The notes under the pieces were generated by a model, which saw nothing but the letters and a program-made list of their open reading frames with translations, searched no databases and was not told where the DNA came from. 64,000 nt of DNA from Vibrio ezurae NBRC 102218. Its GTDB lineage: Bacteria > Pseudomonadota > Gammaproteobacteria > Enterobacterales > Vibrionaceae. Shown one piece after another: positions 6,470 to 27,046 of this stretch; position 1 is the first letter of the stretch; each line of letters starts with the position of its first letter. The stretch is taken from NCBI RefSeq assembly GCF_000467185.1, contig NZ_BATM01000008.1:62001-126000 (forward strand), in the 5' to 3' direction. A program made the translations under genes and the position numbers.

Positions 6470-7819
6470 GTGATTAAACGATTATTTGTAAGTCTACTGA
6501 TGATGTGCAGTTTGGGCGTATCTGTTGCCCATGCTTCACTAGAACTTGTTATTACTGAAGGCGTAAACTCAGCTCGCCCCATCGGCATTGTGCCATTTAA
6601 ATGGGCTGGGCCGGGAAAACTGCCGCACGATGTATCAGCGGTGATCGCCTCTGATTTACAGCGCAGTGGTAAATTTAGCCCAATTCCGACCAATCAAATG
6701 CCTCAAACACCTTATCAAGATAAGGATGTGGATTATTCGGCGTGGACTGCCATGGGTGTTGACGCTCTATTAACGGGCACCATTACCGATGCAGGCGACG
6801 GTAAATACCGCGTGCAATATAAACTGATTGACGTGGTACGCGGCGCCTTGACCAATGGTCAGTCTAAATCACTGCAAAACGGTAAGTTGGTGCTGTCTAA
6901 AGATCACATTCTATTCAACAAACAAGCGACCGTACCAGGCCCTCGTTTACGTGAATACGCACACAGAATTTCAGATTTAGTGTACGAGCAATTAACGGGT
7001 GATCGCGGCGCATTTTTAACGCGCATAGCGTATGTGGTCGTGAACGACAAAGACAGCTATCCATACCAACTGAGAATTGCCGATTACGATGGCTACAATG
7101 AACGTTTGGTACTGCGCTCTAAACAACCGCTAATGTCACCATCATGGTCACCTGATGGCAGACAATTGGCTTATGTCAGTTTTCAAAGCGGCCACTCAGA
7201 AATTTACTTGATGAATATCTATACTGGTAAAAGAGAGAAGCTAACGTCATTCCCTCGTCACAATGGTGCGCCAGTATTCTCTCCTGATGGTAAGTCTTTG
7301 GCTTTGACACTGTCTAAGACTGGCAGTTTACAAGTGTATACAATGGACTTAGCGACTAAGAAGCTAAAACAAATTACTCGTGGTCGCGCAAATAATACCG
7401 AACCATTTTGGAACCCAGATGGTAAATCGCTAATATTCACTTCTGATAGGGGTGGTAAGCCTCAGATTTATCAAGTAAATTTGGCAAGTGGTGCAAGTAA
7501 GAGGTTGACTTGGCAAGGTAGCCAAAACTTGGGTGGTCAAATTACCCCAGACGGACGTTTCATGATTATGGTGAATCAATCCCGTTCAGGATTTAATTTG
7601 GCAAAACAAGATTTGGAGACTGGAGCGGTTCAAGTGTTAACAAAAACACTACTAGACGAGTCTCCTAGCATAGCTCCAAACGGCGGAATGGTGATATACA
7701 GTTCGATGTATAACAAAAATAATGTACTATCGATGGTTTCGATTGATGGACGTTTTAAAGCCAGACTACCAGCAACCAATGGGCGTGTAAGAGCACCCGC
7801 CTGGTCACCGTTTTTGTAA
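6470..7819 (+). CDS. tolB: Tol-Pal system beta-propeller protein TolB
   Basis: TolB is a periplasmic protein that binds Pal and TolA. The product is 449 residues with a signal peptide (cleavage near VAHA-S), an N-terminal alpha/beta domain and a six-bladed propeller made of PD40 repeats ([43 protein letters not shown]). I chose the GTG at 6470, preceded by AAGGAAA at 6458-6464, because it gives the family N-terminus [10 protein letters not shown]; an ATG at 6446 inside tolA would add eight residues. Confidence 0.94.
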
Positions 7820-7866
7820 CCGTTTTCTTAACAACGTTACTTTTTATACAATAAGGAAAATTTAGA

Positions 7867-8421
7867 ATGCAACTTAATAAAGTTTTGAAAGGACTGCTAA
7901 TCGCACTTCCTGTACTGGCTGTTACAGCTTGTAGTTCATCTGACGATGCGACTGATGCATCAGATGCACAACAAACAACAAATCAAGAAACTCAACAAGC
8001 TACGCCAGCAGAAACGACTGATACTACAGTAGTATCTCCAATGACTGACGAGCAAAAACTGGCTGAAGAGCGTGAAGTTGCTGAAAAAGCACTACGTGAA
8101 AACACTACGCTTTACTTCGCATACGATAACTCTGCAATCAGCTCTGAGTACGAAGAAATGCTTTCAGCTCACGCTAAATTCCTAAGCGAAAACCCAGATG
8201 TTAAAGTATCTATCGAAGGTCACGCTGATGAGCGCGGTACTCCTGAGTACAACATCGCACTAGGCGAGCGTCGTGCTAACGCAGTTTCTAACTACCTACA
8301 AGCTTCTGGCGTTCAAGCTGACCAAATCTCTATCGTAAGCTACGGTGAAGAGAAGCCACTAAAACTAGGTCAAACTGAAGAAGCGTACGCGAAAAACCGT
8401 CGTGCGGTTCTAGTTTACTAA
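7867..8421 (+). CDS. pal: Peptidoglycan-associated lipoprotein Pal
   Basis: Pal (184 residues) is an outer-membrane lipoprotein that binds peptidoglycan through an OmpA-like domain. There is a lipobox (LAVTAC, Cys near residue 22), a low-complexity Thr/Gln/Asp linker, and an OmpA_C domain with [20 protein letters not shown] near residue 118. It is 47 bases after tolB, with AATAAGGAAAA as ribosome-binding sequence. Confidence 0.96.
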
Positions 8422-8439
8422 TCTTAGGAAGACGTAAAC

Positions 8440-9222
8440 ATGATCAGTAACTATAAGCGAGCAGTTGCGCTTACGTTACTAGCAAGTGCGGCGAGTGTTT
8501 CATTCGCCGCACCAGCTCCCGTTTCTGATCTCAACTCTAGCAGTGTCTCGACGTCAAAATCTTCCACTGCCTCTAAAGAAAATGAGACACAACGTCTGGA
8601 GCGTTTGCTTAGAAACAGCAACCGAGTTCAAGCTAATTTACAACAACAAGTCGACGAATTATCGATGGACTTGAGTGAATTACACGGTCAACTTGAAAAA
8701 AGCGCGCACGAAAGAGAGCAACTTGTCGAAAGACAAAAAGAATTGTTTATCGAGCTGGACCGTATGCGTACAGAGCTAGCCGATATTAAAAAGGCGCCCG
8801 CGGCTCAGCCTGCACAAGCCACACCTGAAGGTCAGTATTCATCTAACCAAGGTGAGCAACAGGCGTATCAAAGTGCTGTCGATCTTATCTTAAAAAATAA
8901 AGATTATGATGCGGCCACCGTTGCCTTAGAGCAATTCCAAAAAGACTTTCCAGAATCTGTGTATTCGGCCAATGCAAGCTACTGGCTAGGACAGCTCTAT
9001 TTCTCGAAAAAGAACGACGTAGAGTCAGCTAAGGCATTTGCTTCGGTTGTTTCACACGAGAAATCGAACAAGCGTGCAGACGCACTGGTTAAGCTTGGTG
9101 ACATTGCGGTGCGCAATAACAGCGCTGCTGCGGCCAAAAAATACTACCAGCAAGCCATTGATGAGTATCCAAATACCGGCTCAGCCAATTCAGCGAAGCA
9201 GAAATTGTCGAAACTGAAATAA
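8440..9222 (+). CDS. cpoB: Cell division coordinator CpoB (YbgF)
   Basis: CpoB coordinates outer-membrane constriction with septal peptidoglycan synthesis through PBP1B and TolA. The 260-residue protein has a signal peptide (ending SFAA-P), a coiled-coil trimerisation segment (about residues 48-110) and C-terminal TPR repeats (YQSAVDLILKNKDYDAA; YWLGQLYFSKKN; KYYQQAIDEYPNTGSA). It is the last gene of the tol-pal operon and is followed by an intrinsic terminator. Confidence 0.94.
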   Translation: MISNYKRAVALTLLASAASVSFAAPAPVSDLNSSSVSTSKSSTASKENETQRLERLLRNSNRVQANLQQQVDELSMDLSELHGQLEKSAHEREQLVERQKELFIELDRMRTELADIKKAPAAQPAQATPEGQYSSNQGEQQAYQSAVDLILKNKDYDAATVALEQFQKDFPESVYSANASYWLGQLYFSKKNDVESAKAFASVVSHEKSNKRADALVKLGDIAVRNNSAAAAKKYYQQAIDEYPNTGSANSAKQKLSKLK

Positions 9223-9237
9223 TCATAGGCTTAATCA

Positions 9238-9266
9238 AAGCTCAACGTCTTAGTTGAGCTTTTTTG
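9238..9266 (+). terminator. Terminator of the tol-pal operon
   Basis: AGCTCAAC (9239-9246) pairs with GTTGAGCT (9253-9260) around a six-base loop, followed by a run of T. It lies 16 bases after the cpoB stop. Confidence 0.88.
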
Positions 9267-9333
9267 CTTTTGGCAACCAGCGTCAAAGCAGTGTACAATG
9301 CTCTAAGTTAAAGGAAGTTGCCCGAGCATTGCA

Positions 9334-10395
9334 ATGAGCCAAATATTAGAAACAGCACCAACAATATACCCATTCCCTCCGAAACCTGTTCCATTGAGCA
9401 ATGATCAAAAACAGGCGTACAAGGAGAGCATCAAAACCCTTCTTAAACAAAAAGATGCGGTATTGATTGCCCATTATTACACCGATCCAGAGATCCAAGC
9501 TCTAGCAGAAGAAACCGGCGGTTTTGTCGGCGATTCTCTAGAAATGGCAAAGTTTGGTAATCGTCATTCTGCAAAAACTTTGATTATTGCAGGTGTGCGC
9601 TTCATGGGGGAGTCAGCTAAGATCCTAACCCCAGAAAAGACCATTCTAATGCCAACACTTGAAGCCGAGTGTTCGCTCGATCTAGGGTGTCCGGAAGAAG
9701 AGTTTAGTCAATTTTGCGATCAGCACCCAGATCATACGGTAGTGGTTTACGCTAATACCTCTGCGGCCGTGAAGGCCCGCGCTGATTGGGTTGTCACGTC
9801 CAGCATCGCCCTTGAAATCGTCGAGCACCTAGACGCAGAAGGTACGCCTATTATTTGGGGACCAGACCGTCATTTAGGTTCATACATTGCCAATCAAACC
9901 GGCGCTGAAATGCTGCTGTGGAATGGTGAATGTGTGGTTCACGATGAGTTTTCTGCGAAAGCACTAAAAGACATGAAAGCGGTGTACTCTGATGCGGCTA
10001 TCTTAGTTCACCCTGAGTCACCAGCCAGTGTCGTCGCGCTTGCCGATGCCGTAGGCTCAACCAGCCAGCTGATTAAAGCTGCGAAAGAGCTTCCGCAAAA
10101 GCAATTGATTGTTGCCACTGATAAAGGCATTTTCTTCAAAATGCAGCAACTGGTGCCAGAGAAAGAGCTGATTGAGGCACCCACCGCAGGCGCAGGCGCA
10201 ACCTGTCGTAGCTGTGCGCATTGTCCTTGGATGGCAATGAACGGCCTTAAAGCCATTGAATCCGCACTGAAAAGTGGCGGGGCAGAGCACGAAATCTTTG
10301 TGGATGAAAACGTACGCGTTAAATCACTGATTCCGCTAAATCGTATGTTAGATTTTGCCGAGCAGCTGAACATTAAAGTGAAAGGTAACGCTTAA
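9334..10395 (+). CDS. nadA: Quinolinate synthase NadA
   Basis: NadA condenses iminoaspartate with dihydroxyacetone phosphate to make quinolinate in de novo NAD synthesis, using a [4Fe-4S] cluster. The 353-residue protein shows the family blocks [31 protein letters not shown] and [12 protein letters not shown]; the Cys of SLDLGCP or ECS and those of the last block are the cluster ligand candidates. AAGGAAG precedes the ATG. It is flanked by terminators and so is probably a single-gene unit. Confidence 0.95.
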
Positions 10396-10423
10396 GCCAT
10401 CTTGAGCGTTTATCGACAGCAAA

Positions 10424-10458
10424 TAAAAACCTCGACGCACAGCGCCGAGGTTTTTTAT
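10424..10458. terminator. Bidirectional terminator between nadA and the UPF0149 gene
   Basis: AAAAACCTCG and CGAGGTTTTTT flank an inner CGC/GCG stem. The A tract on one side and the T tract on the other let it work in both directions, which fits the convergent nadA (+) and UPF0149 gene (-). Confidence 0.85.
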
Positions 10459-10476
10459 TTATATAGTGTTTAAAGA

Positions 10477-11076
10477 CTATTGCTCTGAAGCTAATATCGC
10501 GCCACGCTGAGTGAGTCCACATAACATCATAGGTACGGCATTAAAGATCTCGACAAACTGATCTAAGCCGTTCATACCTTCTTCTGACAAGGTAGCAAGT
10601 GAAGTCTCTGGATCATAAAGCATGCTAATAGAAAGCAACACACCGCCCAGCAAGGCATTGTCTTGGCTATTTTCAGGCATCAGTGTTTGCCAATCATCTT
10701 GCGCCAACTGCCAGCCTTGTAGCAGACCTTCACAAAATTCTTTAGTCGCTTCAGTCACAATCTCTTGATCGTTTAAGCCACATTCAATCGGCCACTGCCA
10801 AGTGTCCTCAAAAAGAGCAGGACGGGTCGCATTCCAAGAACCCACTACCGCTTCTAAATAAGCCTCTAACTGCTCACCATCAGTGAAAGGGGCCGTTTCT
10901 TCCCCTCCCCATAGATAAGCAACCCATTGAGATGGGTCAAGGACATTAGGGGCAGCCGCAACAGCCGTAATAAACCCAAGAGTTTGATGATAAGGGAGGA
11001 GGCGGTCTTCCAGCTCAGGTTGAGCAATAATTTGTGCTAAATCCAAAATATTTGTCCAAATAAAGGTTTTGCCCAT
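10477..11076 (-). CDS. UPF0149 (YecA/YgfB-like) family protein
   Basis: The product is 199 residues starting MGKTFIWTNILDLAQI. The LPYHQTLGFITAVAAAPNVLDPSQWVAYLWGG segment is the typical hydrophobic/acidic start of UPF0149 proteins, which have no agreed biochemical role. I chose the ATG at 11076, preceded by AAGGG, because the longer frame up to 11211 encodes a stretch unlike the family. No C-terminal SEC-type zinc motif is present. It converges on nadA and lies just upstream of tRNA-Ser on the other strand. Confidence 0.75.
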   Translation of the reverse strand: MGKTFIWTNILDLAQIIAQPELEDRLLPYHQTLGFITAVAAAPNVLDPSQWVAYLWGGEETAPFTDGEQLEAYLEAVVGSWNATRPALFEDTWQWPIECGLNDQEIVTEATKEFCEGLLQGWQLAQDDWQTLMPENSQDNALLGGVLLSISMLYDPETSLATLSEEGMNGLDQFVEIFNAVPMMLCGLTQRGAILASEQ

Positions 11077-11263
11077 TATATCAACCCTTAGCCCCCAACT
11101 GTAATGCAAATTAGTCGCAAAAGCGTCAATTTCCAACGAACTAGACAATAATTGCGCAAACAAACCAAAACAAAGTAAAAACCGCCCAAATCTACTTGAC
11201 CAACCGCCCACAAATCATTAAATTAGCGCCTCGTTGACAGACACTGTCAACCTAATCAAATTC

Positions 11264-11351
11264 GGTGAGTTGTCCGAGTGGCTGAAGGAGCACGCCTGGA
11301 AAGTGTGTATACGGCAACGTATCGAGAGTTCGAATCTCTCACTCACCGCCA
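11264..11351 (+). tRNA. tRNA-Ser (GGA anticodon)
   Basis: An 88-base tRNA with acceptor arms GGTGAGT / ACTCACC, discriminator G and encoded CCA, the D-arm TGTCCGAGTGGCTGAAGGAGC, anticodon loop CTGGAAA (GGA), a long class II variable arm (TGTGTATACGGCAACGTATC) and T-arm GAGAGTTCGAATCTCTC. Class II structure plus GGA anticodon means serine. tRNA-Ser genes are common integration sites; an integrase-like remnant starts 76 bases downstream. Confidence 0.95.
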
Positions 11352-11426
11352 CATTAGAAACCCTTGCTTCGGCGAGGGTTTTGTCGTTTTAGGGCTATCT
11401 GTTCCTTAAACACGGACACAGACACA

Positions 11427-11702
11427 ATGTATCTAATCAAGTCTAACTATGGCATCTATTACTTTAGATTTACTGTTAGAGCCAACGGTATACAGCACCA
11501 ACCTAAGTTATCTTTAAGAACCAAGTGTAAGCGCAAAGCTAGATACCATTCGGCTATCTTGTCTAATGCTATCTATAATCTACCTAGAAACACTGTAGAT
11601 GCTATTAAAGCTACCTACTCAGAACAAGGCAGGGGATACTCAAGTTTCATCAAGAGTACTTATCTTGTTATAGGTCTTACATTAAATACTTCACCACATT
11701 AG
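11427..11702 (+). pseudogene. Truncated tyrosine integrase-like N-terminus
   Basis: The frame from the ATG at 11427 encodes 91 residues, MYLIKSNYGIYYFRFTVRANG followed by KLSLRTKCKRKARYH. This resembles the N-terminal arm-binding region of phage-type tyrosine recombinases (YYFR..., LSLRTK...A). No catalytic R-H-R-Y part follows. A different frame (LDKNINILRVVQKAINRES) continues to a TGA at 11843-11845 and could be the same gene after a frameshift. The position just inside a tRNA-Ser gene fits an integrase remnant. The remaining bases to 11976 show nothing I recognise. Confidence 0.55.
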
Positions 11703-11976
11703 ATAAGAACATCAACATTTTGAGAGTTGTGCAAAAAGCGATAAACAGAGAGAGCGTAACAAAGCGATTGCTTGGGCGTAATACTTGCGTCTCAAGACTC
11801 GATGGATTCGAGATGATTATTTCAATGATCAGAAAATGCTATTGAGTTCGGGTACCATATGTTTTCTAGGATTAATGCAAAATATGCGATTATTTGCCAT
11901 AGTGCTGCTGCTGTGGCAACACTGTGCTTTTTGTAGTCAACGCTTTAGCTAACTGAAGCGTAAAGCAAAAGCCTCT

Positions 11977-12840
11977 TCAGAAAAACAAATATGGCTTCAG
12001 CTCTTCAAAATTCCCTAAGATGATCTGTTGTCCTTTGGGGTTCGAATTCAACATATTAATATCGATGTTATAAGCATCAAGAACATAGCGAACTAATGCT
12101 GCGTTCGTCGGTATTGCCAGGATTCCTTTTTCCATACCATAGTCGTGTGCAATCACTTTGGCTTGGGCTTCGGTCAATCTTGAGTCGGGGATTAACTTAA
12201 TAGATAGATGAGTATTCCAAAGCCTATCTTGTTCTTTCCCTTTTGTTTTTTTTGTCTCGAGAGTTGGAATACCTCGAATTCGGCTCAGCACAAAATCACG
12301 ATAACCTTTTGCATGTTCACAGTAAGCCCGAATATGCCAGCGTAGAGGTGTGCAAACGAGGGTATGAGGAGAGATAATCCGCTCAACTTGAATACCGTCT
12401 TTGAGAGATGTGTAGCTTATGTCGACACGTTTTTTCTCTCTGATAGCTTGAACTAATGGACGCAAGACTTGTGGTGATATATTGCGAGTCACAGGGCGGA
12501 TCATTGAAACATTCTCAAATCCCATATCGAGTTCTTTAAATGTGATGGTCATATCTTCACTTCTTGAAAGAATGTGCAAATATTCATCAGCATGACCGCT
12601 TGTTACTTGTGGGATAAAGCTATCACTGGGCTTGTAGCCTTTGAGCTGCTTATCATAAACAAGATTTCCTGGAGCGATGTCGGTTAGATAGGTGTTGATG
12701 TCTTTCGAAGCTTGCTGTCTGCCAATACCAAAGCTCTGAATCAAATGGTTGGTAGTGAGTCGCCCTTCCCATAATGCAATGATTTCTATCATTCGGTAGC
12801 GGAACAGCAGATCCCAACGTATTGGCCATTTGCTCATCAT
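11977..12840 (-). CDS. WYL-domain transcriptional regulator of a defence operon
   Basis: The 287-residue protein has an N-terminal winged helix (about residues 14-60, with SFGIGRQQASKDINTYL), a WYL-like domain near residues 150-200 (ISPHTLVCTPLRWHIRAYC...YRDFVLSRI) and a C-terminal WCX-like segment. This is the BrxR/CapW layout; such proteins repress phage-defence operons and are thought to sense a ligand or nucleic acid. In the WYL motif the central Tyr-Leu is replaced by His-Ile (WHI). It is divergent from the SMC-type operon, with 93 bases between the starts, so it probably controls that promoter. ATG at 12840 or 12837. Confidence 0.8.
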   Translation of the reverse strand: MMSKWPIRWDLLFRYRMIEIIALWEGRLTTNHLIQSFGIGRQQASKDINTYLTDIAPGNLVYDKQLKGYKPSDSFIPQVTSGHADEYLHILSRSEDMTITFKELDMGFENVSMIRPVTRNISPQVLRPLVQAIREKKRVDISYTSLKDGIQVERIISPHTLVCTPLRWHIRAYCEHAKGYRDFVLSRIRGIPTLETKKTKGKEQDRLWNTHLSIKLIPDSRLTEAQAKVIAHDYGMEKGILAIPTNAALVRYVLDAYNIDINMLNSNPKGQQIILGNFEELKPYLFF

Positions 12841-12933
12841 CTAATTCCTGTCTAGTTATGCGACGTGTGTATGCAATCAGTATTTACCTGTCGTTATTGA
12901 CGTCATATTATTGAATTTGCTGTAGCTAAGTCA
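12841..12933. promoter_or_regulatory. Divergent promoter region, WYL regulator / SMC operon
   Basis: The 93 bases between the two divergent starts must hold both promoters and probably the regulator's operator. I see short inverted segments such as TTATTGACGTCATATTATTG but no perfect long palindrome. Confidence 0.45.
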
Positions 12934-13749
12934 ATGAAAGGATTTGGACATACTGAAATGAAACTTAACCGATATCTCAATAAAATCTCACAGGGCGGTA
13001 TGATCAACTTAGAGCACTTCCTCAAGTCTTTGCCATTCTCGGACATCAATGAATGGCGGAAAATTTATCGTGCAACTCGTTTTAAGAATGGCTATCAAAT
13101 GGAGATACTCGATGAAGAACGGCATCACGCACTCTTTGAGCCGGAGGTAAGCAATAGAGTCGAAGCATCAAACTTGGGTCGTTCACATGATTTCCCAAGT
13201 AATTTCGCTCATGTCCTAGTTTTGAACCTCTCCACTAAATCGCAGATCCCTTTTGTTGTTGTATCGGATAGCAACGGTTACAAAACCCATGGAAAGCTCA
13301 TTGGCAAACGAGCAGTTCTTATTGAAAATATAGAGAACTTCTATCGATATCGAGAGTTCCTAGAGTTAATCGGCCATTCTTTGTTGGCGGAAAACTCAGA
13401 CATCATTTTTGGTGCAGGAAATCAAATATGCGACTATCTGAACAGACCATTTTTATCTACTTATGATGAGATCTATTGTGCTCAAGACGTTGAATTGGGC
13501 GGGCTAACTGTGTATGGAACTCTCAAAAAGTCATTTCCTCAATGTGAATGGCTTGCTCCAGTAGATTGGGACTTATTTCAAAACAAATTCAAACTCAAAC
13601 CCAAAAACGCAGTTCACTTAGCTAAGGCGATAGAGCTGGCTCGAAATCTTGGCTTAGATTCAGAAGCCGATCTTATGAACAAAACTCGCCTATTCCTAGA
13701 GCAAGAGGCTCTATTACCCGAAATACGACAGGATTCCACTGATGTTTAA
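12934..13749 (+). CDS. JetD/MksG-like Toprim nuclease subunit of a Wadjet-type complex
   Basis: The protein has 271 residues. A Toprim-like core is visible: GKRAVLIENIENF (candidate metal-binding Glu131, residues 125-136) and, about 54 residues on, YCAQDVELGGLTVYG (Asp185-x-Glu187), the place of the DxD pair in DUF2220/JetD nucleases. JetD/MksG cleaves plasmid DNA held by the SMC complex. At 271 residues it is much shorter than canonical JetD (about 380-400), and the N-terminal arm domain appears reduced. The start may be 12934 or the ATG at 12958; neither has a strong ribosome-binding site. It overlaps the next gene by 8 bases, so it is in the same operon. Confidence 0.65.
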   Translation: MKGFGHTEMKLNRYLNKISQGGMINLEHFLKSLPFSDINEWRKIYRATRFKNGYQMEILDEERHHALFEPEVSNRVEASNLGRSHDFPSNFAHVLVLNLSTKSQIPFVVVSDSNGYKTHGKLIGKRAVLIENIENFYRYREFLELIGHSLLAENSDIIFGAGNQICDYLNRPFLSTYDEIYCAQDVELGGLTVYGTLKKSFPQCEWLAPVDWDLFQNKFKLKPKNAVHLAKAIELARNLGLDSEADLMNKTRLFLEQEALLPEIRQDSTDV

Positions 13750-16681
13750 CAATCCAATAGATAATCTTCTAATCAGTATATCGCGCTTGGTTGCAGTAGA
13801 TTGTGCTGGCGTTGCAATTGCAGAAATTGACCTGCGTGAAGGCGGGATTCTTATTGGTGGAGGGAACATCGGTAAAACTTCCATTCTGAACGCCATTCGA
13901 CTCTTTTTGCTGCCAGAGGAGAACTTTAAAGATTCAAAAAATAAGTTTGGATTTTCAGATAAAGAAGGCAACTTTTACTCCAATGATGAGTGCTTTGAGC
14001 ATTACTTCCCTAGTAGCACCAGCTTCCTGATTTTGGAATGTGACAACTACCTCGGCGGGCCAATGCCTCATTGTCAGATACTCTATCGTGGTAACTCGGA
14101 TAAGCTCGATTATCGCCGTATGTTTACGTCCCTTCGGTATGCGCAAATACGGCATATATTTTGGGATGACAACGTTGGGGATGATGGCATTGGTGGTCGA
14201 GTCGATGATTTATCACCCAGCAAAGTGCAGGCTTTTCTAAAGCGTGAGGATAAGCACTTTAAATCATTAGTACGCTCTTCCGCGATTAAGGAAGTGATCT
14301 ATGCGAATCAACTACTCGATATCGATGCGATGCGTTTTTGTTTATTTCCTCTCAGCTCAACTAAGGATGCAGATGTCGATGCTTTTCGAGCACTCGTCCG
14401 CTTGCTATTTGATATGAAAACGGGGTCGGACACGGTTCGCTTGGCTGTGGCCAATATCATTGAATCGAGAAAGAAGGAGCGCAAAGACGAACTCAATTTT
14501 GATATTGATGCTTTTATTAATCATAACGACATGTTGTCAAGTCGCGAGCTAATACTTAAAAAAATTGAAAGCCTAAGACCTGAGTACGAAAAGCTAGCCG
14601 TCAGTCATCAGCAATTAGTGAGCAATAAAAATGCTGAAGATGCGCTGATGCAGTACGCTATGATGCTTGACAGCCGAATCAATCAAGAAAACCAAATTCT
14701 TGAGCAAGAAGAGATACAGTTAACGTTACAGAAAGGAAAAGTACAGTCGGCTAAAAAAGTGTGTGATGACACTGTCGATAAACAAAAGACACTGAAAGGT
14801 GAGGTTAAAGTACTCGTTCGTCAGCAGAAAAAGCTCAATGAGATTGTGCAAGAGACGGATCTTATCCTTAACATCTACGATAAAAGTGAGACGATAGACG
14901 ACATTATATCAGGCCACCGTGAACACCTGGATGATAAAAAGGAAGCGTTAAGATTAAAGGAAGATGCAGAGGCTCTACAAACTGAATTGGAAACCCTCAA
15001 GCAAGAAATTTCCAACCTTAGCGAGACTGAAGCTCGCTATAAAGCCTCGGTCAATGCTCAACAATTTAAACTGTTTAACCAGTTACCTGAAAGTGTTTGG
15101 ATGAAGTTAGCAGCGGTTAATGAGGAGTTGGCGGAGGCTAACCCCGCAAGAGTGTTATCCTCATCAGAGAGGCAGGCAATTGAGTCATTTACCGATTTAT
15201 TAGAAGAAAAACAGCAGCACTACGCACTTTGGGACTTAACATTAGGGTCTATCTCAAGCACAAATCGAGAGTCTGACCAAACGCGATTATCTAAAGTACA
15301 AGAGGCCTTAGAGCAAAAACGCAAGCGAGTTACAGAACTCAGTGTAATGGGTAATCAATCCCGCATTGAGCGAATTAAAGAAATTACGGCGCTTAAAACG
15401 GAAATCAAACGTACTGAAAATGAAATCAACTTGCTAAAAGCATATACAAACAATGCAGATCTGTTTCAAGAGACTAATAAAGAACTAGCGGAAGCCGAAG
15501 AAGTGCGTGAGTCGCTACAAAAACAGTTCGATGCACAAAATGATCTGTGGGTACAAGAAAAGCAGTCGTTTGACGAACAAACTCACAAATTAGCCGAAAA
15601 AAAAGAACAAGTAGAAAAATTAACCGGACGCAGCATTAGGGTCAAAGCGGAACTTCAGGCGCATCATCTGCCAGTCAGTGATTTCGCAGTTTTACCCGTT
15701 CAAACCCTCGACCTTTCGGAAGAAACACTACGAGATCGAATAGATGCTTTGCACAAAAAGCGTCAATCAAAGACCGAAATTACCGAAAAAATCCAAGGTT
15801 TTGTCAGAGAGCAAGTGCTAGAAAGTGACGATAAGTTGATGCTCTCTCACCTAGATGATGAGCTTCTAGAGCACGCATTTCAGCAACTCCAAACTCGCTA
15901 TCAAGGCTTAGATGATGAGTTTGATATTCTGCGTAAAAATTTTGTTGAACATAAGCACACTGTTCACGCCATCATCAATGAATTAAAAAATAATCGAGAA
16001 TTAGTTTTCCAGTTTGAACAGAATATTAACCGTGCGTTTGAAGGATTAGAGATCAATGATTTGTCACAGGTTGAAGCCAAAATCAAGGTTGAGGCGCGAT
16101 TTGATGACCTAGTGAGGGAAATCGAGTTTTTTGATTCGCACTCAGATCAAAAAGCCTCGGAGCAGTTTATTGACCGCCTCAAAGCTTTTAGCAAAAAGTT
16201 TTTCCCAGAAGGCAAAGCCGCGCTGCTGACCATGGAGCAGATTGTCTCTGGCATTAGCTATAGAGTTAAAAAGCGTGGTCAAAATGGTTGGGAGAGCAAA
16301 TCACAGTCCACCTCTACTATCATGCTGATCAATATCAAGCTGGTGGAAATTTTGTTGAGCCGATTAAGAAATAGCGCTTGTGCAACCCAATTTCCACTAG
16401 TGATAGATGAAGGTGCTTCGGTGGATAGTTCACAATTTGATTGGCTGTTGCCAAATATGAAAAAAGCAGGCTTCCGAGTTTTAAGTGCTTCGACTAACTC
16501 GGCATCCAGTGAGATCATCTTTAAGTTTGGTCAACATTTCCGTTTGGATTCGATGCGCACTTCAAAACCCTACGATGAAGCTCGAACCATTGCTTATACA
16601 GGCATACCAGAAAGCTTTGTGATAAAAGGAAGTGCGCTGGATAGAGAGCAACTCGATATTTGGGGAGAGGCTGATGAGTGA
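13742..16681 (+). CDS. SMC-type ATPase (JetC/MksB-like)
   Basis: The 979-residue protein has an ABC-type head split by long coiled coils, the SMC/Rad50 layout. Walker A is GGGNIGKTS (Gly39-Lys45-Thr46), followed by ILNAIRLFLLPEENF; Walker B is FPLVIDEG (Asp889-Glu890) near the end, with a coiled-coil core from about residue 290 to 850. The signature motif before Walker B (SKSQSTSTIMLINIKL) lacks the classical SGGE. JetC/MksB proteins load DNA loops and recognise plasmids. It overlaps its neighbours by 8 bases on both sides. The four-gene context separates it from RecN, SbcC or MukB. Confidence 0.72.
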   Translation: MFNNPIDNLLISISRLVAVDCAGVAIAEIDLREGGILIGGGNIGKTSILNAIRLFLLPEENFKDSKNKFGFSDKEGNFYSNDECFEHYFPSSTSFLILECDNYLGGPMPHCQILYRGNSDKLDYRRMFTSLRYAQIRHIFWDDNVGDDGIGGRVDDLSPSKVQAFLKREDKHFKSLVRSSAIKEVIYANQLLDIDAMRFCLFPLSSTKDADVDAFRALVRLLFDMKTGSDTVRLAVANIIESRKKERKDELNFDIDAFINHNDMLSSRELILKKIESLRPEYEKLAVSHQQLVSNKNAEDALMQYAMMLDSRINQENQILEQEEIQLTLQKGKVQSAKKVCDDTVDKQKTLKGEVKVLVRQQKKLNEIVQETDLILNIYDKSETIDDIISGHREHLDDKKEALRLKEDAEALQTELETLKQEISNLSETEARYKASVNAQQFKLFNQLPESVWMKLAAVNEELAEANPARVLSSSERQAIESFTDLLEEKQQHYALWDLTLGSISSTNRESDQTRLSKVQEALEQKRKRVTELSVMGNQSRIERIKEITALKTEIKRTENEINLLKAYTNNADLFQETNKELAEAEEVRESLQKQFDAQNDLWVQEKQSFDEQTHKLAEKKEQVEKLTGRSIRVKAELQAHHLPVSDFAVLPVQTLDLSEETLRDRIDALHKKRQSKTEITEKIQGFVREQVLESDDKLMLSHLDDELLEHAFQQLQTRYQGLDDEFDILRKNFVEHKHTVHAIINELKNNRELVFQFEQNINRAFEGLEINDLSQVEAKIKVEARFDDLVREIEFFDSHSDQKASEQFIDRLKAFSKKFFPEGKAALLTMEQIVSGISYRVKKRGQNGWESKSQSTSTIMLINIKLVEILLSRLRNSACATQFPLVIDEGASVDSSQFDWLLPNMKKAGFRVLSASTNSASSEIIFKFGQHFRLDSMRTSKPYDEARTIAYTGIPESFVIKGSALDREQLDIWGEADE

Positions 16682-18086
16682 TAAAAGGCTACTGACCATC
16701 CCCACGTTTGCAATTATGCTTGAACATCACACCATAATGAGGGACGTGATTCGGACAATGGATGAGGGAGGGGAGCCTTATGTAAGAGAAGCGACCTTCA
16801 TCTCTAGATTACACCGATACATACAAGGGCAAAGCAAAGACAAACAAAAGCAATTACGTACTGCCTTTTCTACCGATAACTTGTTAGCGGCCCATATCTT
16901 AGTCGACAAAGATGAGTTCGGTGGTGAAAGTCGCTTGATCTTTGATCGAGCCGTGATTGGGGTATTTCGTCTGTTTGATCGCAGCCTATTTCAAGACCTT
17001 ACCGATGTAGCACTTAAAATCCAGCTCGGTGGTATACGTATACTCTTAGAAAAGCTGCAATCGGGTTCGATGCTCTATAGCGATAGTGACTTAGATTTCA
17101 AGGAGTTAATTGACGAATTATTTCATCAATTGAGTGAGCTGCTTAACAGCATCCGCTTGAATTTGGTAAAAATGCAAACGATCAATCAGGAGCTCAGTGA
17201 TGCGAGTGAACTTGCTGCCAAATCGGATAACCCACAAGTGTTCTCACTCCTCCAGCAAGAGTCGATAGAAAAAATATCGCTATTGTTATCGAGGCACATA
17301 CTGCCCACGCGACAATTTTTGGATGAGAAAAGTCGCTTGAAAGATGGTCCGAACTTGTTTGAATGTTTGCAAAGTTTACGCAGTCAGTTTGAGCGCCATC
17401 AAGATCACCCACGGGCGAACGCGATGTTGAGATATGAGGTGAGTTTTAACAGTTTTCACAAACAGATCAGTAAAGTATCGCATTCAGTCGATCAGTTTTT
17501 GGCACGATCTAAAAAACGCCTCCAACAGTTTAATGCTATTGAAACGGCATTTGGTGATTTAGTCAAAGAGCTAGATGCAACAAAGCACAACCTAAAACGC
17601 AGCCAGATAGATGGGCAATTTGCCCGAGATAACGGCGCATTTATGGGCTTAATGCAACAAGCTAGGCCCAAAGTGCTTCGTATCAGCAGTTCAGAAGCCT
17701 ACCTCAACAATGTAGTGAGTGATATAGATGCGCGAGTCGCGGATAAACGCCTGCTAGATCGAGGCCGTTATGTAGAGTTAGTTAGCACTAAAGATGATTC
17801 CACCGAACGAAGGCTCGCTCGCGCAGAGCAGATCTTTGAATTGGTGAAGCAGATGAAAATGGCCGAATATCAAGATCTCACGCTCTCACTTCATCGGCGC
17901 CTAAAAGAACATCTGGTTGATTATCATTTTGTTGATCTGTTGGAAGGGCTTAACTTCTTATTACGCAGTGAAGCGATGCTTGATGGACACATACTTAAAA
18001 TGACTAATTTCCGCCAACGCATTGCCCAAAGCGACACTATTTATCTATACCGTAAAATTCGAACAGAGCGAGTAACTAATCTATGA
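16674..18086 (+). CDS. Kleisin-like subunit (JetA/MksF-like)
   Basis: The product is 470 residues from the ATG at 16674, which has GGAGAGG upstream and overlaps the SMC gene stop. It is mostly helical: an N-terminal winged-helix-like part (IPTFAIMLEHHTIMRDVIRTMDE), heptad-rich helices in the middle and a C-terminal helical end. Kleisins of the MksF/JetA class link the SMC heads and bind MksE/JetB. The call rests mainly on size, helical content and gene context; the primary sequence has no motif I can name with certainty. Databases may carry misleading names for such proteins. Confidence 0.6.
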   Translation: MSDKRLLTIPTFAIMLEHHTIMRDVIRTMDEGGEPYVREATFISRLHRYIQGQSKDKQKQLRTAFSTDNLLAAHILVDKDEFGGESRLIFDRAVIGVFRLFDRSLFQDLTDVALKIQLGGIRILLEKLQSGSMLYSDSDLDFKELIDELFHQLSELLNSIRLNLVKMQTINQELSDASELAAKSDNPQVFSLLQQESIEKISLLLSRHILPTRQFLDEKSRLKDGPNLFECLQSLRSQFERHQDHPRANAMLRYEVSFNSFHKQISKVSHSVDQFLARSKKRLQQFNAIETAFGDLVKELDATKHNLKRSQIDGQFARDNGAFMGLMQQARPKVLRISSSEAYLNNVVSDIDARVADKRLLDRGRYVELVSTKDDSTERRLARAEQIFELVKQMKMAEYQDLTLSLHRRLKEHLVDYHFVDLLEGLNFLLRSEAMLDGHILKMTNFRQRIAQSDTIYLYRKIRTERVTNL

Positions 18087-18649
18087 CGCCATTTTCTCAA
18101 ATAAGCATGGTGAAAAGCCAGCAGATATACACGACATTCGTCAATGGTAAGGTTATCACTAAGCAAGCTTATGACCTTTACCAGCAACATTTTATTGAGA
18201 GCCCGCTTTATACCGAGCTTTACAATAATCTGGAGCACTTTACTCAGTTCTATCTGCACATTGGTTATAGCCTTAACTTTAACGTAGAAGGGGAGTTTTT
18301 CTATATTAGTCGCAGTGAGGCAGAAGAAGACGCAGACACTAATGCCACCAAAATCCAGGCCATGTTGCTGATTATTGCCCGTTACTGGGTAGACAAGGGC
18401 TTCGATTTAGATGATCTCACCACGCCAGTGATAGGACTCGGGCGCACAGCATTAGACGAGATTGCAGAGCAAACCATTTATGATGATATTCGCCAGGCGC
18501 TTGGAATAGAAACTTGGGATAAGGCCATCAACTACCTTGCGGATCGAAACTTCCTCTATCCTTGTGGTGATAAACATTACGTTCTAAGTTCAGCTGGAAT
18601 GCATTTCTTGAACTTGCATGTTGAAAAATATTCACAAGAACAAGAGTAA
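18083..18649 (+). CDS. MksE/JetB-like kite subunit
   Basis: The 188-residue protein has the look of tandem winged-helix MksE/JetB (DUF4194-like) proteins: YNNLEHFTQFYLHIGYSLNFN followed by EGEFFYISR, then KIQAMLLIIARYWVDKG and a C-terminal winged-helix segment ending ...ADRNFLYPCGDKHYVLSSAG. Kite subunits bind the kleisin and dimerise. It overlaps the previous stop codon (ATGA) and is the last gene of the operon. A candidate hairpin lies 39 bases further on. Confidence 0.62.
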   Translation: MTPFSQISMVKSQQIYTTFVNGKVITKQAYDLYQQHFIESPLYTELYNNLEHFTQFYLHIGYSLNFNVEGEFFYISRSEAEEDADTNATKIQAMLLIIARYWVDKGFDLDDLTTPVIGLGRTALDEIAEQTIYDDIRQALGIETWDKAINYLADRNFLYPCGDKHYVLSSAGMHFLNLHVEKYSQEQE

Positions 18650-23776: not shown

Positions 23777-25113
23777 GTGAGTTGCCGAAAGGGTGGGAAC
23801 TAATTACGCTTAAAGAAGAGTGTACGTCGGTAAAGGGAAAAAAACCCAAGTCATTGGAAATAGAACAGAGAGACTCTTTGGTACCTTATGTCGATATTAA
23901 GGCGTTTGAAAAAGGAATCTTTGCAAAGTTTGCTGAAGCGAATAGCGGAGTGTTAGCTCAGGAAAACGATACATTGATGGTCTGGGATGGCGCTAGATCT
24001 GGTTTGGTAGGGAATGGTGTCAAAGGGGTTGTAGGGTCGACGTTAGCTAAAATAACACCGAATTATTCACATAGGTGTTATCTTCACTATTTTTTGAAGT
24101 CGAAATTTGATCACATTAATACAAAAACTAAAGGGACAGGAATTCCTCATGTGGATCCTGCTGTCTTGTGGAGTATTTCTTACCCTCTAGCACCACTAAA
24201 CGAACAAATCCGCATTGCCAACAAGCTAGATTATATTCTTGCTATGGTCGATAAAGCCCAAGCGCGTTTAGACAAAATTCCAGCGATCCTAAAACGTTTC
24301 CGCCAATCGGTATTGGCTGCCGCAACGTCTGGGGAGTTGACTCATTCGAGTGTGGCGACAAAAGAGTGGAAGATTGTCAAGCTAATAGATCTTGTTGAAA
24401 ATAAACCAAGAAATGGTAAATCACCAAAAGGGGTTGATTTTGATACTGGCGTTAAGAATTTAACGTTGTCGGCTATTACTCCGGGTTATTTTGTTGAAAA
24501 TAAATATAAATTTGTCGATCTTGATGTTCCTACTGGTTCCCATTTATGGCTAAAGAATCAAGATATCTTGATTCAAAGAGCTAACTCAATCGAATATGTT
24601 GGGGTAAGTGCTTTATATGAAGGTGAAGATGATCAATATATCTATCCTGACTTGATTATGAAATGCAGAGCTAATGAGCGAGTGTTATCAAAATATTTAT
24701 ATTACGCTTTGTCATCAGAGCCTGTTAGAAAATACTTTAGAGATAATGCAACAGGTACTACTGGTAATATGCCGAAAATCAATCAGGCAGTAGTCTCTGC
24801 TGCACCAATCAATCTTCCGAAAATAGATGAACAAAAAATCATTGTTGATAAGGTTGAGAGTTTATTTAAGAAAGCCGACAAACTAGAACAACAATACCTA
24901 GTCGCGAAAGCTCGATTAGATCGCCTAACTCAATCTATTCTAGCCAAAGCCTTCCGAGGTGAGTTAGTACCACAAGATCCAAACGATGAACCAGCAGAAC
25001 AACTGTTAGAGTGTATCTTGAAAGAACGTCTTTCTCAGCAACAAAAAGCAGATAAACCCAAGAAGACAGTTAAAAAACGTACAATCAAAACCAAAGTTGC
25101 AGACAAAGGGTAA
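23773..25113 (+). CDS. hsdS: Type I restriction-modification specificity subunit
   Basis: HsdS (446 residues) sets the DNA target of the type I enzyme. It shows two target-recognition domains (about residues 1-140 and 195-350), each ended by a conserved helical spacer: PLNEQIRIANKLD with a following coiled coil, and IDEQKIIVDKVESLF with its own coiled coil, then AFRGELVPQDPNDEPAEQLL. The start is GTG at 23773, overlapping the hsdM stop. The Lys-rich tail is longer than average. The half-sites recognised cannot be read from sequence. Confidence 0.93.
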   Translation: MSELPKGWELITLKEECTSVKGKKPKSLEIEQRDSLVPYVDIKAFEKGIFAKFAEANSGVLAQENDTLMVWDGARSGLVGNGVKGVVGSTLAKITPNYSHRCYLHYFLKSKFDHINTKTKGTGIPHVDPAVLWSISYPLAPLNEQIRIANKLDYILAMVDKAQARLDKIPAILKRFRQSVLAAATSGELTHSSVATKEWKIVKLIDLVENKPRNGKSPKGVDFDTGVKNLTLSAITPGYFVENKYKFVDLDVPTGSHLWLKNQDILIQRANSIEYVGVSALYEGEDDQYIYPDLIMKCRANERVLSKYLYYALSSEPVRKYFRDNATGTTGNMPKINQAVVSAAPINLPKIDEQKIIVDKVESLFKKADKLEQQYLVAKARLDRLTQSILAKAFRGELVPQDPNDEPAEQLLECILKERLSQQQKADKPKKTVKKRTIKTKVADKG

Positions 25114-25120
25114 TACGGAT

Positions 25121-26287
25121 ATGAATCAATCACTCTCACTAGTCAATATCAAAGCCAATAACTTTAAGTCGCTGGTGGACTTTTCGCTGCCGTTTAGTAA
25201 GTTTAATTGTCTTGTGGGTTTAAACGGCTCGGGTAAATCGACGGTATTGCAGTTTATTGATTTCCTCTCACAGCAGATAAGTGGCGACATTGATGAGTGG
25301 TTGGATAGCCGTCAGTGGAGTGCTAGAGATCTTAATTCAACGTTAAGTAAGCAACTCAATATTAGCTTTACTGCTGAGCTGAGTTATCAAGGGAAGCCGG
25401 TTAAATGGACAGCAAGTTTTAATCGAACTGAGCTAAATTGTACTTCTGAGAAAATTACTTGGGGTGGAGAAACATTACTTGACGTTACTAGTGGTCGTTA
25501 CTCCGTGCCAACGAAAGATATTTATGATGCCATTAATTTTGACTATCAAGGTTCTATTCTCTCTCAGCTAAAAGAAAAGCAATTGCCGAAAGAACTAGTG
25601 AAATTTAAAACTTTCTTCAATGAGCTTAATGCACTAGACATGCTTTCACCCGATATGCTTCGTGACCAACACATCAGTGGTAAAACACTTGGTGCGGGTG
25701 GCAAGATGCTGTCGAGCTTTATCAGTAATATGAAGAAAGAAGAGAAGTCGAACTTAGTTTCGACGCTTAAAGGCTTGTATCCAAATTTGATCAAGGTGGA
25801 CGCTACGGTTCAAAAATCGGCAGGCACGGTTAAGCTTGAGATAGAAGAAAAGTTTGGCGAAAAAACCATCAAAACTGAAGCTAGGCATATTAACGATGGT
25901 TTGCTTCGCTTTATGGCTATTTTTGCTCAATTAACCAAAAAGCAAAGTGCTCTATTGCTTGATGAGATCGAAAATGGTGTGAATCCAGAGCTGATCGAAA
26001 AGCTGGTGGACAGCTTAGTGGCGGCAAACACCCAAGTCATTGTTACCACTCATAGCCCAATGATTCTTAACTACATGGAAGATGACGTCGCTAAAACAGG
26101 TGTTGTTTATCTGTATAAGAATAAAACAGGTGCAACTCAAGCGATTCGACTGTTTGACATCCCCTCTATGCAACGCAAGTTGAAGTTCATGGGGCCTGGT
26201 GAAGCTTACGAAGATACAATGCTTGAGAACCTAGCCTCTGAAATTGCCATATTAGAACACGCAATTGTCGAAGATACTGACAGCTAA
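25121..26287 (+). CDS. AAA_21/OLD-like ATPase next to the type I RM genes
   Basis: The 388-residue protein is an ABC-class ATPase. It starts with NIKANNFKSLVDFSL, has Walker A VGLNGSGKST (near residue 35), a signature-like region ARHINDGLLRFMAI, Walker B ALLLDEIENGV and an H-loop VTTHSPMIL. This is the RloA/OLD/PARIS AriA type of defence ATPase. I chose the ATG at 25121; a start at 25097 inside hsdS adds eight residues. The next gene begins 14 bases later and encodes a Toprim-like partner, so they likely act as a pair. Location between hsdS and mcrB suggests a guard or add-on for the restriction systems. Confidence 0.75.
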   Translation: MNQSLSLVNIKANNFKSLVDFSLPFSKFNCLVGLNGSGKSTVLQFIDFLSQQISGDIDEWLDSRQWSARDLNSTLSKQLNISFTAELSYQGKPVKWTASFNRTELNCTSEKITWGGETLLDVTSGRYSVPTKDIYDAINFDYQGSILSQLKEKQLPKELVKFKTFFNELNALDMLSPDMLRDQHISGKTLGAGGKMLSSFISNMKKEEKSNLVSTLKGLYPNLIKVDATVQKSAGTVKLEIEEKFGEKTIKTEARHINDGLLRFMAIFAQLTKKQSALLLDEIENGVNPELIEKLVDSLVAANTQVIVTTHSPMILNYMEDDVAKTGVVYLYKNKTGATQAIRLFDIPSMQRKLKFMGPGEAYEDTMLENLASEIAILEHAIVEDTDS

Positions 26288-26301
26288 TAGGAGCATAAAG
26301 C

Positions 26302-26997
26302 ATGTATTTAGTTGTCAGCGGTGAAGGTGAAACAGACATCGGAAAAAGCAATGAGGCCATAGGGCCACTGAGTAAACTGATTGATAAGTATATTGAGCCT
26401 TATTCGGGGTTTTCATTACTAGAATCAGAAATGCTCGAAGTTGTTCATGAAGCAAGAATTACTGAAATCTCTCGAGATAGAAGTATCATCAAACCCTTAT
26501 CAAGGCGCGGTAAAAAGACTTTACATGAAACTCGTGAGTTTTACAGTGCTGCCCGTGCTCTAGCCTATGTAGCACAGATCGCGGATATCCAGCCAAGCCT
26601 AGCGGTTTTATTCCATGATTCAGACAGCAATAGATGGCCTGATTACAATTCCAAACGCCTTTCGATGAAACATGGCTTTGAAGCTCAGGGCTTTGACAAT
26701 GGTATCCCTTTTATTGCTCAGCCTAAATCAGAAGCCTGGCTTTTATGTGCGCTGAAAAACGGCTATAGAAATTGTACAGCTCTTGAAGAGCGTTCTGGTA
26801 ACGATAATTCACCTAATTCTTTAAAAGGTGAGTTGGAAGCTCATTTAGGTGAACCAGCTACTCGAGTTAAACTCAATGAGCTAGTAGATGAAGGCAATAT
26901 CTATCTTGCTCAAATCACAGATATGCAGTCGATGACCGATTTCCAAGAGTCGATGAAAGAAGTACTAAGGCGCATGTTGGGTAAGCCGATCGAATAG
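26302..26997 (+). CDS. DUF4276-like protein, probable Toprim-type effector partner
   Basis: The protein has 231 residues. It opens with a beta strand and an acidic motif, YLVVSGEGETDIG, then VLFHDSDSNR (near residue 110) and PKSEAWLLCAL (near residue 147). This pattern, Glu in the first strand, DxD in the second and a conserved PK-EAW, fits the DUF4276/RloB group that accompanies AAA_21 or AAA_15 ATPases and has a Toprim-like fold, as in AriB of PARIS. Such partners are nucleases or toxins. The function here is inferred from the pair and context, not shown. Confidence 0.62.
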   Translation: MYLVVSGEGETDIGKSNEAIGPLSKLIDKYIEPYSGFSLLESEMLEVVHEARITEISRDRSIIKPLSRRGKKTLHETREFYSAARALAYVAQIADIQPSLAVLFHDSDSNRWPDYNSKRLSMKHGFEAQGFDNGIPFIAQPKSEAWLLCALKNGYRNCTALEERSGNDNSPNSLKGELEAHLGEPATRVKLNELVDEGNIYLAQITDMQSMTDFQESMKEVLRRMLGKPIE

Positions 26998-27046
26998 ATA
27001 CGCCATAATTAAAGAATAAGAAGAAATTATAAATAAGGAATACAAA

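What the first reader, a model, noticed from the sequence alone, without database searches (positions are those of the whole stretch)
11977..18649. Wadjet/MksBEFG-like SMC complex with the gene order D-C-A-B and its own WYL regulator
Four overlapping genes encode a Toprim-type protein, a 979-residue SMC ATPase, a helical kleisin-like protein and an MksE-like protein. Canonical Wadjet/Mks operons run kleisin-kite-SMC-nuclease (A-B-C-D); here the nuclease comes first. The divergent WYL gene fits regulation seen with BrxR/CapW. Similarity to the known types is low to the eye, so this may be a divergent Wadjet lineage. Seen: gene sizes, overlaps, Walker motifs. Known: Wadjet cleaves plasmids. Inferred: same role here.
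Basis: partly seen in the sequence, partly recalled or inferred. Interest (0 to 1): 0.72.

Follow-up and report, generated by a model that had tools for sequence, protein, structure and literature searches.

The report
Nuclease-first MksBEFG/Wadjet-type SMC operon
Four overlapping genes encode a DNA-loop-pulling SMC machine with its own DNA-cutting enzyme, a little-known branch of the bacterial systems that destroy invading plasmids, found patchily in Vibrio and its relatives and not yet tested in the laboratory.

Summary
Window 12958-18649 (+) encodes, in overlapping genes, a Toprim nuclease (263 aa), a 979-aa SMC ATPase, a kleisin (470 aa) and an MksE-type kite (188 aa). Kite: Pfam MksE, 1.6e-22. 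SMC: near-full-length profile match to MksB, E 8e-44. Nuclease: JetD_C hits in 14 of 17 members (E<=0.1), and the catalytic E, DxD/E and EQE motifs of MksG/JetD. Kleisin: the weakest case; a low-confidence model whose seven best PDB rows are all MukF-type chains, plus a moderate MksF profile score. The order nuclease-SMC-kleisin-kite held in 24 of 24 loci where it could be read. The SMCs form one clade (95/96) apart from MksB. In a gammaproteobacterial census 16 of 18 loci put the nuclease last; the other two belong to this lineage. In the host family (Vibrionaceae) 17 of 197 genomes match, one a broken remnant. The divergent WYL gene is BrxR-family, adjacent in 11 of 23 loci, so frequent but not obligatory. 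Most likely this is an MksBEFG/Wadjet-kind anti-plasmid system in a divergent, nuclease-first lineage: a new variant of a known kind. Activity is inferred. Type III Wadjet gene order was not tested.

The parts
12958..13749 (+). MksG/JetD-like Toprim nuclease, 263 aa (component D); ORF can open at 12934
   Evidence: JetD_C in 14 of 17 family members at E<=0.1, best 1.1e-8 (window itself 20 bits, under the 22-bit cut-off); HHalign 95.8% to type I JetD and 95.2% to a 4-sequence MksG-like set; AF2 model best VIA row is MksG 8b7f, Z 7.4, rmsd 4.6, 132 aligned, tied with the Toprim protein RecR at 7.3; E123, D177 and EQE 248-250 invariant in 17 rows
13742..16681 (+). MksB-like SMC ATPase, 979 aa (component C)
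   Evidence: HHalign to a 7-sequence MksB set 100%, E 8.3e-44, residues 8-916; Walker A GGGNIGKT and Walker B PLVIDE; tree
16674..18086 (+). MksF/MukF-like kleisin, 470 aa (component A)
   Evidence: no Pfam or PDB sequence match; AF2 pLDDT 51.7; seven best VIA rows are chains of MukF, MukEF or MukBEF entries, Z 13.3-14.3; HHalign to MksF 64.4%, 6.4e-5
18083..18649 (+). MksE-like kite, 188 aa (component B)
   Evidence: PF21980 MksE 1.6e-22, 81 bits against cut-off 27
11977..12840 (-). BrxR-family WYL transcriptional regulator, divergent
   Evidence: phmmer to BrxR 7t8k 8.5e-57, CapW 7tb6 4e-35; PF13280 1.2e-14
12846..12913 (.). conserved intergenic block, candidate operator/promoter; imperfect inverted repeat at 12860-12894 (8 of 13 paired in the window, up to 11 of 13 in L025)
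   Evidence: 51 of 68 columns invariant in the 7 aligned loci, against 22 of 112 in the rest of the intergenic region in six rows; its core is absent from three more distant WYL-adjacent loci, L014, L154 and L155

Best explanation
The operon encodes a nuclease-armed MksBEF-type SMC complex of the MksBEFG/Wadjet kind. Two SMC heads, bridged by the kleisin and its kites, hydrolyse ATP and pull DNA into loops. When the motor runs out of DNA on a small closed circle, it hands the DNA to the Toprim nuclease, which cuts it. The cell thereby rejects small plasmids and perhaps circularised phage DNA. A divergent BrxR-family WYL repressor, where present, keeps expression low until a signal relieves it. 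Shown here: the four families (kleisin moderately), the order, the clade, purifying selection, and the conserved intergenic block. Inferred from the characterised relatives: loop extrusion, cutting, plasmid rejection, and repression.
For: MksE kite 1.6e-22. SMC to MksB 8.3e-44. JetD_C in 14 of 17 nucleases. Catalytic residues: the window motif RAVLIENIENF aligns with type I JetD, which aligns with MksG; counting residues in that alignment puts the Glu and first Asp at MksG E236 and D279 (same spacing of 43; my inference), whose alanine mutants had drastically impaired nuclease activity (PMC10123090, passages). Kleisin model best matched by MukF-type chains. Accessory, patchy distribution: 17 of 197 genomes of the host family. 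The host carries a separate MukBEF-like locus. Neighbouring genes are a type I restriction-modification operon and PADLOC candidates and an McrBC component. The two plasmids that carry the lineage are large, 320 and 599 kb; no match in 50,697 phage records.
Against: No activity test. The kleisin rests on a low-confidence model and a moderate profile score: the tool notes that mostly helical models without a clear match typically reach a best Z of about 14, the eighth row (an unrelated Munc18-syntaxin chain) has Z 13.2 against 13.3-14.3 for the MukF rows, and one control pair outside this family (MksF against type I kite) reached 44.5%. The nuclease model has pLDDT 65.6, and its Z values (5.7-7.4, tied with RecR) are in the range the tool calls common. 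Foldseek alone gave nothing at E under 0.001. In 8 of 12 Vibrionaceae rows, the window included, the second acid of the Toprim DxD is Glu, and the SMC signature SQSTST lacks the glycine found in 5 of 8 distant rows. Two large plasmids are too few to show size selectivity. The core of the intergenic block is missing from three WYL-adjacent loci.
Confidence: 0.78

Rival explanations
1. An accessory condensin: an MksBEF-type chromosome or replicon organiser whose Toprim protein resolves or nicks DNA for segregation rather than for defence.
For: The core is closest to MksB/MksE, a family that includes chromosomal condensins; an MksBEF-like locus with no nuclease identified occurs (L075); the lineage sits on two large replicons.
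Against: Patchy presence (17 of 197 genomes of the host family), a separate MukBEF-like locus in the host, location beside restriction genes, and a nuclease gene in all 25 loci read.
Confidence: 0.1
2. A phage-defence rather than anti-plasmid system: the BrxR-family repressor is lifted on infection or DNA damage, and the complex attacks replicating phage DNA.
For: BrxR/CapW-family regulator in 11 of 23 loci; BrxR homologues co-localise with many phage-defence systems, Wadjet included (PMC9122601, passages).
Against: The characterised nuclease-bearing relatives act on plasmids (PMC10123090, PMC10586767, passages); about half of the loci lack the regulator.
Confidence: 0.1
3. A Lamassu/AriA/Gabija-like ATPase-plus-Toprim system that only looks like an SMC-kleisin-kite operon.
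For: Weak PADLOC hits of the SMC to AriA (4 of 17), GajA (3 of 17) and LmuB (three models, 1 of 17 each).
Against: The window's AriA hit covers only the P-loop region (residues 27-77). The kite is MksE and the SMC matches MksB along nearly its whole length.
Confidence: 0.02

Closest known systems
MksBEFG (Corynebacterium glutamicum and Pseudomonas; PMC10123090, which calls the C. glutamicum system a Wadjet type I)
   Same: Four components: SMC, kleisin, MksE-type kite, Toprim nuclease with the same catalytic motifs
   Different: Order nuclease-SMC-kleisin-kite instead of mksFEBG; 263-aa nuclease (though a 277-aa DUF7281 protein follows MksB in L079); separate SMC clade
Wadjet type I JetABCD (E. 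coli GF4-3, P. aeruginosa PA14)
   Same: Nuclease Toprim domain and motifs; four-gene operon with SMC, kleisin, kite
   Different: JetA/JetB/JetC models do not recognise the window's kleisin, kite or SMC; type I SMC frames in the census are about 1,080-1,220 aa against 979; order A-B-C-D
MukBEF-like locus of the same genome
   Same: MksE/MukE kite family; MukF-like kleisin fold in the model
   Different: No nuclease identified there and a 1484-aa SMC; order kleisin-kite-SMC
BrxR / CapW WYL regulators
   Same: The WYL gene is a clear relative (8.5e-57 to BrxR) and lies divergently upstream
   Different: Here it faces an SMC-nuclease operon, and only in about half of the loci

Membership tests
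MksBEFG/Wadjet kind | SMC ATPase with Walker A and B, related to MksB/JetC | tested here: met
MksBEFG/Wadjet kind | kleisin subunit | tested here: met
   moderate only: seven best rows are MukF-type chains (model pLDDT 51.7, Z close to what helical models give by chance), MksF profile 64.4%; no sequence-family hit
MksBEFG/Wadjet kind | kite subunit | tested here: met
   PF21980 1.6e-22
MksBEFG/Wadjet kind | Toprim nuclease (JetD/MksG) with catalytic Glu and Asp | tested here: met
MksBEFG/Wadjet kind | restricts circular plasmids | not testable with these tools
   bench work needed
Wadjet type I or canonical MksFEBG | order kleisin-kite-SMC-nuclease | tested here: not met
   D-C-A-B in 24 of 24 readable loci; census
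Wadjet type I | recognised by JetA1/JetB1/JetC1 models | tested here: not met
   window kleisin and kite 0 PADLOC hits at E<=1, SMC no JetC1; the nuclease has weak JetD1 hits in 11 of 17 members
Wadjet type II | JetC2-like SMC and its operon order | tested here: not met
   one of 17 SMCs hits JetC2, 9.9e-5; the one strong JetC2 locus found among 299 genomes (L185) reads kleisin-kite-SMC-nuclease by position, gene size and Toprim motif, by eye
Wadjet type III | JetC3-like SMC and its operon order | tested here: inconclusive
   weak JetD3 hits in 10 of 17 nucleases and weak JetC3 hits by two models, 1 of 17 SMCs each; no JetC3 locus at E<=1e-20 in 289 genomes nor in the controls, so its order could not be compared
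BrxR/CapW WYL regulators | sequence relation to solved BrxR/CapW | tested here: met
BrxR/CapW WYL regulators | binds an inverted repeat and represses the operon | not testable with these tools
   a conserved block with an imperfect inverted repeat is present in the closer loci; binding untested

The most novel reading that the evidence does not exclude
A distinct class of SMC-nuclease immunity ('GBFE'): an MksB-core motor with a compact, exchangeable Toprim nuclease encoded first. Nuclease cassettes are swapped on to the same motor by recombination, and in many hosts expression is held by a BrxR repressor and released by invasion or DNA damage.
Probability: 0.25. Interest if true: 0.6.

Novelty: new variant of a known kind. 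Interest (0 to 1): 0.45.

Why it matters
Most work on these machines concerns type I Wadjet (PMC10586767, passages). This lineage joins an MksB-type motor to a small nuclease (263 aa against about 390-490-aa frames in the type I census loci), which would help to ask what a motor needs in order to switch from folding DNA to cutting it. PADLOC models of 2023 recognise none of the window's motor subunits as Jet proteins at a meaningful score, and the two public plasmid records call the four proteins hypothetical, so surveys probably miss it in Vibrio, Photobacterium and Aliivibrio.

Tried and rejected
Viral contigs: three scans gave no relative. Phage records: none (SMC query, E<=1e-5). PDB by sequence: no hit for the nuclease profile, one meaningless hit each for the kleisin and kite profiles (E 0.18 and 0.59), and only coiled-coil and P-loop matches for the SMC profile; phmmer with a Pseudomonas-type MksB gave none. 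Foldseek with the nuclease model was not significant (JetD 7til ranked 8th at E 0.15). JetD_C for the window falls just under Pfam's cut-off, so it was not used alone. JetD3 family search: 17 of 249 genomes; of the 10 neighbourhoods that I fetched seven look like type I operons or remains of them by size and order, L127 begins at a contig edge, and L131 and L133 show no such operon (by eye). Island ends: the 23-nt tRNA-Ser 3' end occurs only once in the window, so no attachment repeat was shown. Kleisin against type I, MukF and C-B-A kleisin profiles: 0.1, 1.2 and 0.6%, so only MksF is recognised; five pairs among the known kleisin sets score 0.1-0.4%. Plasmid hits with weak SMC similarity: the Pseudomonas amygdali and Persicobacter psychrovividus loci look kleisin-kite-SMC by size, not D-C-A-B; the Persicobacter sp. 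JZB09 record has no annotation and was not read further. A sigma-70 scan found fewer sites than shuffles do. Best-inverted-repeat scan: the repeat in the block is the top repeat only in L017, L019, L025 and L159, not in the window, L015, L016 or L021.

Rows left out: in the census 28 of 30 hits were read; the window itself and a fragment at a contig start (G100) were left out. Ten of the 28 have no identified nuclease (MukBEF-like, MksBEF without one, contig ends, or undetermined), which leaves 18: 12 type I and 4 with a DUF7281-like nuclease, all last, and 2 of this lineage. The sequence sets behind that census were picked by me from partly the same loci by gene size and order; only the kite position (PF21980) is independent, and the type I nuclease set is anchored by the match of one member to MksG and JetD. 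The 25 D-C-A-B loci are those with enough DNA fetched; other matches (G694 among them) were not read for order, and most of those appear to be the named loci again.
Full report
Observation. One search confirms a divergent 287-aa gene and four overlapping genes on the plus strand. Relatives fix the nuclease start at 12958 (263 aa) and the kleisin start at 16674 (470 aa). The overlaps of 8, 8 and 4 nt suggest coupled translation.

What the parts are. The kite hits Pfam MksE at 1.6e-22; the nuclease hits JetD_C just under the cut-off (20 against 22 bits); the SMC hits only general ATPase models; the kleisin hits nothing. PADLOC gives JetD3 at 6.8e-5 for the nuclease and no Jet motor model at a meaningful score (JetC3 at 0.51). 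Over the family, 14 of 17 nucleases hit JetD_C at E<=0.1, best 1.1e-8. Profile-profile comparison with small sets that I built from other genomes places the SMC with MksB (100%, E 8.3e-44, residues 8-916), well above the C-B-A set (3.3e-16), type I JetC (9.5e-10) and MukB (2.3e-7). The kite matches MksE at 96.7%. The kleisin matches MksF at 64.4% (E 6.4e-5), against 0.1-0.9% for six unrelated profiles; one control pair not involving this family reached 44.5%.

Structure. AlphaFold models were made from 12 close sequences. The kleisin model is poor (pLDDT 51.7). Its seven best PDB rows are chains of MukF, MukEF or MukBEF entries (Z 13.3-14.3, model residues about 106-313; one entry is titled MukF alone, for the others I infer MukF from chain length and shared range). 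The eighth, an unrelated helical protein, has Z 13.2, and the tool says that helical models without a match often reach about 14, so it is the agreement of the seven rows, not the Z, that carries weight. The nuclease model (pLDDT 65.6; residues 1-60 about 85-93) has MksG 8b7f as its best row (Z 7.4, rmsd 4.6, 132 aligned), tied with RecR (7.3), with Topo VI A (6.9) and JetD 7til (5.7) further down among other Toprim proteins. These Z values are modest, so the motif evidence matters more. Across 17 nucleases E123, D177, G182 and the C-terminal EQE (248-250) are invariant. The window motif aligns with type I JetD and that with MksG, where the EQE motif also recurs. By residue counting, the two acids fall on MksG E236 and D279, shown by mutation to matter (PMC10123090, passages). 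The second acid of DxD is Glu in 8 of 12 Vibrionaceae rows.

Lineage and order. Nuclease then SMC holds in 25 of 25. Kleisin then kite follows in 24 of 24 where the contig continues (not in L012, cut by a contig end); the kite of L104 is itself cut by the contig end, and in L013 two small genes lie between SMC and kleisin. In a maximum-likelihood SMC tree 20 such rows form one group (95/96), apart from seven MksB rows (100/100); some branches are long, and the tool warns about them. For comparison, 28 MksE-family loci from 274 gammaproteobacterial genomes were read. Of the 18 with an identified nuclease, 16 have it last (12 type I, 4 DUF7281-like) and 2 first, both members of this lineage. The type I, MksBEF and C-B-A sets used for this were chosen by me partly from the same loci; the anchors are the Pfam kite and one type I nuclease that matches MksG and JetD in the PDB. 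One strong type II locus also reads A-B-C-D by eye. Type III was not found. The mksFEBG order is also what the literature gives (PMC10123090, passages).

Distribution. Relatives are rare in a class-wide sample: 4 of 369 genomes including the own one. In the host family 17 of 197 have a match, 16 of near-full length and one a decayed remnant (G744). Of 72,556 plasmid records two carry it, of 320 and 599 kb; follow-up searches with three distant members added no further clear one (one unannotated record unread). The own genome has a separate MukBEF-like locus (kite 3.6e-48, 1484-aa SMC).

Context and regulation. In the window the operon lies between tRNA-Ser (11264-11351) and a type I restriction-modification operon, with further PADLOC candidates and an McrBC component beyond. 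The WYL protein is a BrxR relative (7t8k, 8.5e-57). It lies next to the nuclease gene in 11 of 23 testable loci, is displaced by two genes in L024, and was not found in the DNA held of 11; two loci end at contig edges. In the seven closer loci that I aligned (of 11 with an adjacent WYL gene) a block of about 68 nt is strongly conserved (51 of 68 columns, against 22 of 112 in the rest) and holds an imperfect inverted repeat (8-11 of 13 pairs). Its 12-nt core is also present in L159, ahead of the displaced WYL gene of L024, and nearly so in L018 and L023, which lack the gene; it is absent from the distant WYL-adjacent loci L014, L154 and L155. BrxR binds inverted repeats and represses (PMC9122601, passages), so this is a candidate operator of the closer loci only. 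Co-localisation of BrxR homologues with Wadjet was already reported there.

Selection and exchange. dN/dS is 0.04-0.16 for the five genes, window against L015. L017 and L018 are 86-98% identical from the SMC gene through the kite gene but 46-74% in the upstream region and nuclease, while L018 and L023 match at 84-90% over the nuclease. This points to replacement of the nuclease end of the operon on to a similar motor, seen in this one comparison.

Novelty. Literature searches for Wadjet, JetD, MksG, gene order, type IV or Wadjet-like variants, and the Pfam names returned no listing that I recognised, from titles, term counts and the starts of abstracts, as describing a nuclease-first lineage; I read passages of four papers only. 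Most subscription papers are outside that library, and I did not see the original Wadjet paper in these listings. I therefore call it a new variant of a known kind, with activity untested.

Noticed in passing
L017 and L018, 7000-8000 against 8000-12900: Sharp change in similarity at the nuclease/SMC boundary between two near-identical motors, as if the nuclease end had been swapped.
   Followed up: partly
L024 1020-6595: A two-gene module (1199 and 656 aa, no Pfam family at cut-off) sits between the WYL gene with its conserved block and the SMC-nuclease operon; possibly another defence module under the same regulator.
   Followed up: partly
L100 5366-11786 and L098 5228-10856: Another unusual order, SMC-kite-kleisin, with a 277-aa DUF7281 protein last in L100 and no nuclease identified in L098; PADLOC barely recognises these SMCs.
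   Followed up: partly
L079 1174-2007, L077 12045-13262: Pfam DUF7281 looks like an MksG-type Toprim nuclease family downstream of MksB; the Pfam name gives no function.
   Followed up: partly
L013 11926-12700: Two small genes (DUF5406 and a hypothetical) lie between the SMC and kleisin genes on a 599-kb Photobacterium damselae plasmid.
   Followed up: no
L158 (G744), 7780-8469: A decayed remnant of the operon with broken SMC and nuclease frames; it shows loss of the system within the family.
   Followed up: no
window 25097-31083: Downstream of HsdRMS: PADLOC candidate pair PDC-M25A/B, an 898-aa protein with weak restriction-enzyme hits and an McrBC component, i.e. a defence island.
   Followed up: no
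window 13742-16681: ABC signature reads SQSTST in all 12 Vibrionaceae rows, and GQSTST in two distant ones, without the glycine seen in 5 of 8 distant rows.
   Followed up: partly
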